Source: Anaerolineales bacterium
GTDB taxonomy: Bacteria > Chloroflexota > Anaerolineae > Anaerolineales > DRMV01
Direction of reading: 5' to 3'
Assembly (NCBI GenBank): GCA_027023425.1
Contig: JALVVL010000007.1
Span: 1-64,000, forward strand
Length of the DNA: 64,000 bases
The position numbers and the translations under genes are program-made. Of this stretch, positions 1-2,206 are shown in pieces. Position 1 is the first letter of the stretch. Every line of letters begins with the position of its first letter. The notes below the pieces were generated by a model. It made no database searches. It was not told the DNA's origin and was given only the letters and a program-made list of their open reading frames with translations.

Positions 1-124
1 AAGTGTTTCGTATTTTGAGTGAGCGTTATCGCAATCGGAGGAAGCGCTTTCGGCTCCGGTTCAACTTGATTGCAGCCATTTACAACATGGAAATTGCCTC
101 ATCGTGACTTTTGCAAGAGGTCTA
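1..124 (+). mobile_element. 3' end of an IS5-type insertion sequence (partial)
   Basis: This is the right-hand end of an insertion sequence cut by the window edge. It holds the last codons of a DDE transposase (3-107), directly followed by TTTTGCAAGAGGTCTA, which looks like a terminal inverted repeat of the type found on IS5-group elements. The left part lies outside the window, so family and integrity cannot be settled. The outer boundary near 124 is inferred from the end of the TIR-like sequence. Confidence 0.5.
3..107 (+). CDS. IS5-family transposase, C-terminal fragment
   Basis: The reading frame enters from the left edge and stops at the TGA at 105-107. The last 34 residues are basic (SERYRNRRKRFRLRFNLIAA) and end NMEIASS. 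This resembles the C-terminal tail of IS5/IS1031-type DDE transposases, where a run of Arg/Lys follows the catalytic Glu helix and precedes an Asn-Leu-Ile-Ala stretch. No catalytic residue falls in the window. Family assignment rests on recalled motif similarity, so confidence is moderate. Confidence 0.5.
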   Translation: MFRILSERYRNRRKRFRLRFNLIAAIYNMEIASS

Positions 125-189
125 TTGAAATTACCACCAAGCACCTTAACAACAGGATAGCAACCGCCAAAATGTTGTATTTTCATGGG

Positions 190-330
190 GAGCCGTCTGA
201 ACGCCGGCGGCTAAAAGCGCATGAGGAGCCAACAGGCTGCCTCGACGCCAAGATTGTCGCTCAGGCGACTCCCCTTTACCGAGACCCGATTGGGATTATT
301 GAGGAAGGCGCTTGCCTTGCCTCGTAGGAA
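190..330 (+). ncRNA. Candidate bridge/seek RNA region of the IS110 element
   Basis: IS110-group elements encode a guide (bridge) RNA in the non-coding stretch between the left end and the transposase. The roughly 330-bp stretch before the transposase here contains three hairpins in a row: 191-197 pairing with 206-212 (one G-U), GTCGC-tcag-GCGAC at 256-269, and a bulged stem 301-309 with 314-323. I see no protein-coding signal in it. The hairpins are read from the sequence; the bridge-RNA role is inference, and exact ends are unknown. Confidence 0.35.
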
Positions 331-440
331 CCACAAGGCTGGGGTCGGAGTTTGTGTTTGGGTCTCTGCTCAATGCCGGCAACACAGACGGCTACCACGC
401 TCACAGTACCTTGACTTCATCTTTGATTAGGAGGTTTGTC

Positions 441-1540
441 ATGGTTACCCGTGTGATTGGCATTGACTTGGCCGTGAAAGGCAAACACACGGCCGCTATT
501 TACGACCCCGCCACCCGTACCTTCATAGCAAAACGGTTACATTTCCGCACTCGCCCCGATGAGATGGAAAATGTCTTGCAACGGGCGCGTCAAGGTGCAC
601 CCTCTGACGTCCAAATTGCCGTCATGCTTGAGGCAACCGGCATGAGTTGGTTCCCTGTGGGGCTTTTCTTTCACCGTCACGGCGCCAAGGTCTACCGGCT
701 CAACGGCCGGGCAACCAAGGCACAACGCAAAGTCAATTGGCCTAACGGCCGCAGTGATAGGCTGGATAGTATGACTTTGGCAAGCATGTACGCCGCTCTC
801 CCAAGTCGCCGATTGATACGTTGGAAGCCGCCCTCTGCCGATTTGATGGCTTTACAACGCATGGTGCGGGAACTCCAGCGCTTGGTAGAGCACCAAACAG
901 CCATAATTTTGCGCCTACAAGCCTTAGACCAATGGGCTTGGGGTGGTTGGCATGGTCTCATTCCCAAACCTTACCAACAATGGGTGCGGAGCAATTTCTA
1001 CGACCCTTGGGAGGTGCTCGCTCATGGCACCGAAGCCCTCGTTGCCCTTTTGCGTAAAGATTACCCTTGTCTTTCCAAGGCATTGGGGAGCGCAGTGCGG
1101 CGATTTACCATGCGTTTATCGGCGACATTTCGCGATTTCCGAACGGACAGGCATTTGCCGGTTGGACGGGGATGGTGCCACGCAGCAACCAAAGCGGAGA
1201 ATCCCAATCACCGCACATGCCCTTGAGCAAGCGGGGCCCCAACCTAATCAAAAACACGCTGTACCAGAATGCCGAAGTAGCCCGCCAATGGGATGTCCAA
1301 CTGGCGAAAGTGTACTACACCCAAATGGTGAAATACGGCAAGCACCACACGCAAGCCGTTTGTGCGGTAGCCTCTCACTTAGCCCGACGGATTTATGCGG
1401 TGCTGCGAGATAGGAAGCCTTATGAACTGCGAGATTTGAAAGGGCGTCCCATCTCAAAAAAGGACTCTCGGGCACTGATACTGAAAGAGTTTCAAGTGCC
1501 CGAGAGCCTACGCAAACAGCGCCGCAAGCATCGTCGGTAA
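441..1540 (+). pseudogene. IS110-family transposase, frameshifted
   Basis: IS110 transposases combine an N-terminal RuvC-like DEDD domain with a C-terminal domain carrying a catalytic serine. The first frame starts at ATG 441, after GGAGG at 429-433, and shows the DEDD set: D9 (VIGIDL), E64 (MLEATG), D106 and D109 (SDRLD). Around 1065-1085 the reading moves by -1. The second frame (about 1067-1540) continues with FQGIGERSAAI, RFPNGQAFAGW and VPRSNQSGES, the conserved C-terminal block with the serine region. Every motif is present but in two frames, and no obvious slippery heptamer lies at the junction. I therefore call a single-base indel rather than programmed frameshifting. Combined length (about 365 aa) is normal for the family. 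Confidence 0.8.
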
Positions 1541-1591
1541 GAGTGCTTGCTGGCCACAAGAGCCTTCCCAGCCCAGAGGCTCTTGCGTAGG
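1505..1591 (+). other. Competing inverted repeats at the IS110 3' end
   Basis: CAAGAGCCT (1557-1565) and AGGCTCTTG (1577-1585) form a perfect 9-bp stem with an 11-nt loop just past the transposase stop. CCTACGCAA (about 1508-1516) can instead pair with TTGCGTAGG (1583-1591), so two alternative pairings share the right arm. There is no U-run, so this is not a classical terminator. It may mark the right end of the element or a 3' RNA structure. Confidence 0.4.
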
Positions 1592-1761
1592 TAAATTATA
1601 CTCGTAGGGCGAAACGGAGTCAAAAGCGTTGTCTATAGCGCAGGCTCCGAACGGATTTGCGCGCTCTCACATCATAGCAGGTTGCTATTCTGTTGTGAAG
1701 GTACCCAAAAATGTCTATCTTTTGGTTGTGCTAAAACCCTTGACAAGATTTAGAATATCTT

Positions 1762-2206
1762 GTTATCCACCGATTGACACAGATTTACACCGATTGAAAA
1801 AGAAAACCACAGAGGACACAGAAATTTACAGAGAACACAGAAAGAGGGGAATTGAGGTACTGAGGGATTGGGGCGTTGAGTCGTTGAGTCGTTGGGGCGT
1901 GGGTAGGGGAGAAAAACCACAGCCACAGAGGACACAGAAATTTACAGAAATTTACAGAAGACACAGAAAAAACTTTTCCTTGCGTCATTTACATTTCTCT
2001 GCGTCTCTGCGTTGCTTTCTTTGCGCCTCTGCGTTACCCTTGGCGCCCTCTGTGCCCTTGGCGCCCTTGGCGTCTCTGCGTTCCTCTGCGCCTCTGCTTC
2101 CTCTGCGTCTTTGCGTTAATCTTGGCGTCCTAAATCGCTAATCTTCTCATCTGTGCCATCTGTGTAATCTGTGGTTTTCCTTTGCGTCTCTGCGTTAATC
2201 TGTGGG
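1762..2206. repeat. Intergenic word-repeat cluster
   Basis: This gap holds no convincing gene. It is built from degenerate copies of several words: CCACAGAGGACACAGAAA (1805-1845, 1918-1970), TTGAGGTACTGAGGGATTGG (1851-1870), TCGTTGAGTCGTTGGGGCG (1877-1900), and the CTTTGCGTCTCTGCGTTAC and CCTTGGCGCCCTTGGCGTC types (1980-2205). The order of words varies between gaps, so this is a mosaic, not one transposon. 1592-1761 shows no recognisable feature. Confidence 0.8.

What the first reader, a model, noticed from the sequence alone, without database searches (positions are those of the whole stretch)
108..1600. IS110 element with frameshifted transposase but intact motifs and a structured upstream RNA region
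DEDD and serine-region motifs are all present in two frames joined near 1065-1085. The 330-bp upstream region has three hairpins that fit a bridge RNA, the guide used by IS110 recombinases. The element lies directly beside an IS5-type end. A recent single-base lesion would leave the guide RNA intact though the recombinase is broken, so it might still be used in trans.
Basis: partly seen in the sequence, partly recalled or inferred. Interest (0 to 1): 0.5.

Follow-up and report, generated by a model that had tools for sequence, protein, structure and literature searches.

The report
Broken IS110 element, guide RNA preserved
This is a dead copy of a known kind of RNA-guided jumping gene: its enzyme gene has lost a piece of about 215 bases and another jumping gene has cut off its left tip, but the guide RNA it encodes still folds correctly and still matches a repeat scattered through the host genome.

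Summary
Against one-frame relatives the recombinase has lost about 214-220 nt (the coiled-coil region), out of frame, at about 1065-1078; this is neither a single-base lesion nor programmed frameshifting. The right end is 1760, not 1600. An IS5-type copy ends at 122, inside the IS110 left end; the severed tip is probably on contig C43. The leader folds as a two-loop bridge RNA, supported by covariation and guide/target pairing across relatives, partly held out. The window's guide names CTTGGCGTC, a dispersed host repeat (10 exact copies in 64 kb), but fits its actual flanks poorly. No other IS110 recombinase or bridge RNA was found in the genome, so present use in trans is unlikely. A relative genome holds an intact copy plus a deletion derivative with a complete bridge RNA. 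The clade joins a left-end bridge RNA with element-specific subterminal inverted repeats of about 23-34 bp in 6 of 7 elements, longer than the published ranges I read.

The parts
1..122 (+). right end of an IS5-type element (contig starts inside it)
   Evidence: same end at three other contig ends, each followed by TA; left end of the same IS encodes a peptide like an annotated IS5 family transposase (52% over 29 aa)
123..124 (.). TA target duplication of the IS5-type element, inside the IS110 left tip
   Evidence: TA outside the IS end in all four right-end copies
123..440 (+). IS110 left end (LE), tip severed; rest of tip probably on contig C43 (L072)
   Evidence: alignment with relatives' left ends
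143..175 (+). left subterminal inverted repeat
   Evidence: local alignment with right end, score 19.5 against shuffle maximum 13.5
174..348 (+). bridge-RNA region matched by covariance model R1
   Evidence: the window is one of the nine sequences of the model
187..200 (+). outer stem of target loop, 5' strand (pairs with 261-274)
213..222 (+). left target guide (LTG), last two bases at the core position
   Evidence: register from relatives
223..243 (+). inner hairpin of target loop (GAGGAGCC...GGCTGCCTC)
   Evidence: 98.6% of cells paired in helix 4
244..254 (+). right target guide (RTG), reads CT-TGGCGTC on the target
261..274 (+). outer stem of target loop, 3' strand
283..346 (+). donor-type loop, closed by GACCC/GGGTC; contains TATTGA as in the left tip
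   Evidence: pairing with donor not tested statistically
441..1076 (+). recombinase N-terminal part, DEDD domain (frame runs on to a stop at 1224-1226)
   Evidence: PF01548, E 1.1e-16; motifs
1065..1078 (+). junction of the 214-220 nt internal deletion and frame change
1067..1540 (+). recombinase C-terminal part, Tnp domain with serine motif
   Evidence: PF02371, E 1.9e-19
1541..1758 (+). IS110 right end (RE); TTGACA at 1740-1745
   Evidence: alignment with relatives' right ends
1669..1702 (-). right subterminal inverted repeat
1759..1760 (+). CT core at right junction
1761..1803 (+). right flank, a dispersed host repeat
   Evidence: about 80 matches to 1760-1800 in the genome
2057..2074 (+). 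nearby host repeat unit that carries the target named by the RTG (CTTGGCGTC at 2066-2074)

Best explanation
A decayed IS110-group insertion sequence of a lineage found in Anaerolineae/Chloroflexota. Intact relatives should work like IS621 (inferred): the element excises as a circle, the RE-LE junction forms a TTGACA-17-TATATT promoter, a bridge RNA from the left end pairs by one loop with the target and by the other with the donor, and the DEDD/serine recombinase inserts the circle at a CT core, here inside dispersed host repeats. The window copy can no longer do this alone: an out-of-frame deletion of about 215 nt removed the coiled-coil region, and an IS5-type element inserted into its left tip. 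The bridge RNA has kept its fold and a readable guide. With no partner recombinase found in the genome it is most likely a stranded relic. Shown by computation: anatomy, deletion, covariation, guide/target pairing in relatives. Inferred: transcription, binding, activity of relatives, inactivity of this copy.
For: Both Pfam domains; NF033542 covered at 1-148 and 223-343 only; six of six complete relatives one-frame, with 75-77 residues where four measured relatives are compared and the window has 11 nt. IS5-type junction and C43 tip. Bridge RNA: 17 of 31 pairs with double changes, 0 of 500 shuffles; outer stem 0 of 20000 and, held out, 1 of 40320 permutations; RTG-flank pairing 30 of 35, 2 of 5040; held-out LTG-flank 38 of 56, 4 of 40320. 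Guide 9-mer 10 times in 64 kb. One PF01548 match and one R1 match in the genome.
Against: The window's own guides fit its own flanks poorly: RTG 2 of 5, LTG 1 of 7 (3 of 7 with a one-base shift). The left flank rests on joining two contigs through a repeated IS, with an unexplained 14-bp tandem. The assembly is a draft, so a partner copy could be in the missing part. No expression or binding data; Rfam has no match at its cut-off.
Confidence: 0.83

Rival explanations
1. The two frames are joined by programmed ribosomal frameshifting and the element is active.
For: Both frames are open with all motifs kept.
Against: Six of six complete relatives have one frame, and joining the frames would still lack the coiled-coil region, which in IS621 mediates dimerization (PMC11208158, passages). 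The left tip is severed.
Confidence: 0.02
2. The copy is still used in trans: its bridge RNA serves, or its ends are moved by, a recombinase from elsewhere.
For: RNA fold intact, guide matches host repeats. In G786 an intact copy (L018) and a deletion derivative with complete ends and bridge RNA (L032) coexist. Bridge RNA works in trans for IS621 (PMC11208160, passages).
Against: No other IS110 DEDD domain or bridge RNA in the own genome; left tip and with it the donor side broken by the IS5-type insertion; intact RNA in single decaying copies is also expected by chance.
Confidence: 0.06
3. The 214-220 nt deletion is an assembly artefact and the real gene is whole.
For: Draft genome of 45 contigs whose contig starts in a repeated IS, with an odd 14-bp tandem at the C43 end.
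Against: The element is single-copy, so there is no repeat of it to collapse; L032 in another genome shows internal deletions occur in this family.
Confidence: 0.07
4. The conserved leader is an ordinary regulatory leader of the recombinase gene, not a bridge RNA.
For: No RNA or binding data here; no Rfam match.
Against: Guide segments agree with each element's own flanks far above permuted pairings, and layout follows the IS621 rule (PMC11208160, section 6).
Confidence: 0.02

Closest known systems
IS621 and the IS110 group with left-end bridge RNA (PMC11208160, PMC11208158)
   Same: DEDD plus serine recombinase, long left end before the gene, two-loop RNA with guides on both sides of each loop, CT core, promoter formed across the RE-LE junction, insertion in dispersed repeats.
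   Different: Relatives' recombinases are longer (436-482 aa); a right end of about 180-220 nt and subterminal inverted repeats of about 23-34 bp in 6 of 7 elements against 2-3 bp reported for the group; sequence match to IS621 only in the Tnp domain by phmmer. The window copy is broken.
IS1111 group (PMC11208160 section 12; PMC11187229 passages)
   Same: Subterminal inverted repeats, RNA-guided DEDD recombinase.
   Different: Bridge/seek RNA usually downstream of the gene there, upstream here; repeats there 7-17 bp (11-13 bp usual) and 7 and 3 bp from the tips, here longer and about 18-27 and 13-58 nt from the core.
Plasmid-borne IS110 relatives in Leisingera, Burkholderia, Gluconobacter, Rhodococcus (L114-L117)
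   Same: Recombinase about 28-41% identical in one or both halves.
   Different: No inverted repeat above shuffles in 4 of 4 looked at; no confident match to R1 (best 8.1 bits, E 0.15).

Membership tests
IS110 family (recombinase) | DEDD RuvC-like domain PF01548 | tested here: met
   E 1.1e-16 above cut-off, motifs at 459-473, 627-641, 753-767
IS110 family (recombinase) | C-terminal PF02371 domain with conserved serine | tested here: met
   E 1.9e-19, QSG at 1190-1204
IS110 family (recombinase) | Continuous gene with coiled coil between the domains | tested here: not met
   Missing in the window copy; present in intact relatives. The copy is a defective member.
IS110 group with left-end bridge RNA | Structured RNA region upstream of the gene | tested here: met
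IS110 group with left-end bridge RNA | Guides match target of each element | tested here: met
   For the lineage: RTG 30 of 35, held-out LTG 38 of 56
IS110 group with left-end bridge RNA | Guides match the window's own insertion site | tested here: inconclusive
   RTG 2 of 5, LTG 1 of 7; the RTG 9-mer is in the left flank instead and frequent in host repeats
IS110 group with left-end bridge RNA | Promoter across the RE-LE junction | tested here: met
   TTGACA-17-TATATT in 5 of 7; the window's uses the tip inferred on C43. Activity not tested
IS110 group with left-end bridge RNA | Subterminal inverted repeats only 2-3 bp | tested here: not met
   About 23-34 bp in 6 of 7 elements. This property describes the published group and is not a strict criterion
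IS110 group with left-end bridge RNA | Transcribed and bound by its recombinase | not testable with these tools
   needs RNA and binding data
IS1111 group | RNA region downstream of the gene | tested here: not met
   R1 region is upstream in the window and relatives
IS1111 group | Subterminal inverted repeats of 7-17 bp close to the tips | tested here: not met
   longer and further inside
Programmed frameshift transposase | Relatives share the two-frame layout | tested here: not met
   0 of 6 complete relatives

The most novel reading that the evidence does not exclude
This Chloroflexota lineage is a separate branch of bridge-RNA elements in which long, element-specific subterminal inverted repeats co-evolve with a left-end bridge RNA, and in which deletion derivatives (L032, perhaps once the window copy) keep complete bridge RNAs with their own, slightly re-aimed guides and are mobilised in trans by intact relatives: bridge-RNA-bearing non-autonomous elements.
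Probability: 0.2. Interest if true: 0.62.

Novelty: new variant of a known kind. Interest (0 to 1): 0.32.

Why it matters
For the window copy alone it matters little: it is a dead IS. For the lineage, it adds a bridge-RNA clade whose guide/target pairing can be read from draft genomes, whose landing sites include host repeats, and whose long subterminal inverted repeats have an open and testable role. G786 offers a natural pair (intact copy plus deletion derivative) for testing whether broken IS110s with their own guide can be moved in trans.

Tried and rejected
Single-base lesion: rejected by alignment with relatives. Programmed frameshifting: rejected. Rfam family: none at gathering score over the window; at E up to 10 on 100-460 only an Xist_exon1 match far below its cut-off. 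Other copies in the own genome: none by DNA, PF01548 or RNA model. Close relatives in viral contigs: none. A fold of 190-352 gave local hairpins with z -1.70; it cut the outer stem and was replaced. The LTG register was first tried at five offsets on nine elements (weak), then fixed at offset 0 and tested on eight held-out elements, with offsets -1..1 also run there. The constrained fold is not used, because enforcing pairs made its energy not comparable. No structure prediction was run. L016/L042, L021/L047, L017/L044, L019/L046 and L013/L101 are taken as the same loci fetched twice, from identical ends, lengths or scores.

Rows left out of tests: L041, L043 and L020 have a right end but no left end; L028 has a truncated RNA (used only for the outer stem and LTG); L038 has most of its RNA deleted; L097 and L099 repeat the element of L089; L092, L093, L095 and L098 belong to another IS110 group and L094 is unclear, so these five were not in the held-out tests.

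Full report
What is there. The window begins at the first base of contig C7 of a 2.2-Mb, 45-contig draft genome, 93.9% complete. Class-mates carrying the relatives are titled Anaerolineae or Chloroflexi bacteria where the same loci were fetched by name, so the class is taken as Anaerolineae (inference). Bases 1-122 are the right end of an IS5-type element; the same end stands at the ends of three other contigs, each with TA outside it. The IS110 element then runs to 1760: left end to 440, recombinase 441-1540 in two frames, right end to a CT core at 1759-1760.

The lesion. Pfam finds the DEDD domain in the first frame and the Tnp domain in the second. The acidic motifs and the serine motif are present. 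Six relatives with complete genes (L042, L044, L045, L046, L018, L013) each have one continuous frame of 436-482 aa. Between the shared 'P' and 'GVG/GIG' positions, L016 and L021 have 75 residues and L017 and L018 have 77; the window has 11 nt, a net loss of 214 or 220 nt, out of frame. NF033542 is covered at 1-148 and 223-343, not between. In IS621 the part between RuvC and Tnp is a coiled coil that mediates dimerization (PMC11208158, passages). So this is an internal deletion that removes a domain, not a point lesion; ribosomal slippage across the frames would not restore it.

The left tip. Four right ends and four left ends of the IS5-type element were seen in the assembly. Only one left end, at the start of C43, is flanked by the IS110 tip sequence CTTGTATATTA, preceded by CTTTGCGTCCCTTGGCGTC. 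I infer that the IS5-type element inserted at a TA within the IS110 left tip and that C43 is the left neighbour. A 14-bp tandem at this junction is unexplained. The joined flanks match a dispersed repeat at 73 places with E up to 1e-5, two of them being the two halves themselves; the top dozen span the junction at 82-93% identity. The element therefore sits in a host repeat.

The RNA. Nine left ends were aligned; RNAalifold gives 31 pairs, 9 with changes on both sides. Covariance model R1 finds one copy in the own genome, and matches in 18 of 396 genomes of the class, own included, and in 3 of 400 of the phylum, own included. On 18 aligned matches 87.1% of cells pair, 17 of 31 pairs change on both sides, and 0 of 500 shuffles reach any of the five measures (the alignment is fitted to the model, and 9 of the 18 built it). 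The outer stem of the target loop is not in that model. Tested separately with hand-delimited segments, own strands pair better than swapped ones: mean -23.8 against -16.6 kcal/mol, 0 of 20000 permutations for 10 elements; -23.0 against -16.9, 1 of 40320 for 8 held-out elements. The window has the strongest outer stem of the first ten (-30.1). Folded alone, window 185-350 gives this architecture with z -2.87.

Guides. The 3' side of the target loop (RTG) should pair with the CT core and the right flank. Over all 7 elements with both RNA and right flank in hand, 30 of 35 positions pair, and 2 of 5040 permutations do as well; per element five have 5 of 5, L032 has 3 and the window 2. The 5' side (LTG) against the left flank was weak in the first 9 elements (24 of 63 at the best of five offsets, 330 of 20000) but clear in 8 held-out elements at that fixed offset (38 of 56, 4 of 40320); the misses are L085 and L089 with 2 of 7 each. 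The layout is that reported for IS621: 5' side of the loop like the top strand, 3' side complementary to it (PMC11208160, section 6).

The window's own guide. Its RTG names CTTGGCGTC. This 9-mer occurs 10 times exactly in the 64 kb outside the RNA, and 2 of 712 nine-mers of the same composition (itself among them) are as frequent; the corresponding 9-mers of 14 other elements occur 0-4 times. With one mismatch allowed there are 46 matches against 23.6 expected. The guide thus fits this host's repeats. It fits the actual flanks badly: right flank TGTTATCC, 2 of 5; LTG 1 of 7, or 3 of 7 with a one-base shift. The left flank reads CTTGGCGTC, one repeat unit away from the expected side. A near-cognate insertion shifted by one repeat unit, or later recombination between repeats, would explain this; neither is shown.

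Ends. All 7 elements have TTGACA near the right tip; joined to the left tip this gives TTGACA-17-TATATT in 5 of 7, a weaker second hexamer in L032 and none in L046 (the window's left tip is the one inferred on C43). A junction promoter is known for IS110 (PMC11208160, passages). In addition, left and right ends share subterminal inverted repeats of about 23-34 bp in 6 of 7 elements, each above all of its 200 shuffles; L044's alignment is longer and gapped, and L046 stays below its shuffle maximum. The match is element-specific: 2 of 5040 permutations of right ends among elements reach it. Four plasmid-borne relatives, picked from lists of 19 and 1067 records, show none. The papers give 2-3 bp for the IS110 group and 7-17 or 11-13 bp for IS1111 (PMC11208160 section 12; PMC11187229 passages). 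The second paper also mentions IS110-type elements with short imperfect repeats and a few IS1111-type elements with an upstream non-coding region. My paper searches listed no paper on such Chloroflexota elements; beyond the three papers named I saw listings only, no preprints are held, and ISfinder was not available.

Trans use. Relatives show that the situation occurs. In G786, L018 carries an intact 459-aa gene; L032 is about 91% identical to it, keeps both ends and the whole bridge RNA, and has lost about 980 nt of the gene. Their RTGs differ by one base, and each fits the first base of its own right flank. L087 in G557 has a left end and bridge RNA with a 10-base LTG match to left flank plus core, and I saw no IS110 gene after it in the 3166 bases held. 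Among nine elements with a complete RNA whose gene state I could decide, six are intact and three (window, L032, L087) are not. Decay alone would give that too, so it is not evidence of selection for the RNA.

Verdict. Observation partly confirmed: a defective member of the IS110 group with an intact, readable bridge RNA, most likely a stranded relic. The lineage, with its long subterminal inverted repeats and its deletion derivatives, is the part worth following.

Noticed in passing
L092 and L095 (also L093, L098), left flanks: A more distant IS110 group found by model R1 has left ends beside CTCC; in L092 and L095 the flank read on the other strand looks like a Shine-Dalgarno sequence followed by ATG (AAGGAGATTCGCATG, AGGAGGAAAAATG), and the RNA carries CTCCTT just before its GAGG hairpin. 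It may aim at ribosome-binding sites.
   Followed up: no
L072 (contig C43 start): A 14-bp tandem, CTTGTATATTAGAC twice, lies at the junction of the severed IS110 tip and the IS5-type left end; slippage or an assembly artefact.
   Followed up: no
window 1760-1803 and about 2039-2188; also near 24.9-25.0 kb and 28.6-28.8 kb: Arrays of dispersed intergenic repeats (CTTGGCGTC / CTCTGCGTC / ACACAGATTTACACCGATTGA types), with about 80 matches to the 1760-1800 unit in the genome.
   Followed up: partly
G838: L089, L097, L099: Three copies of one element of this lineage lie at contig ends, with different left flanks of the CTTTGCG / CTCCGTG repeat type, suggesting recent transposition.
   Followed up: partly
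L100 (G160:C566): A member of the lineage is inserted in the C-terminal part of another transposase gene that looks IS110-like; its LTG shares CGCTACT with the left flank plus core.
   Followed up: partly
L087 (G557:C503): Left end plus bridge RNA without a recombinase gene, flanked by CTTCGTCGCTTCG and CCTCGCAATGACA; possible bridge-RNA-only remnant.
   Followed up: partly
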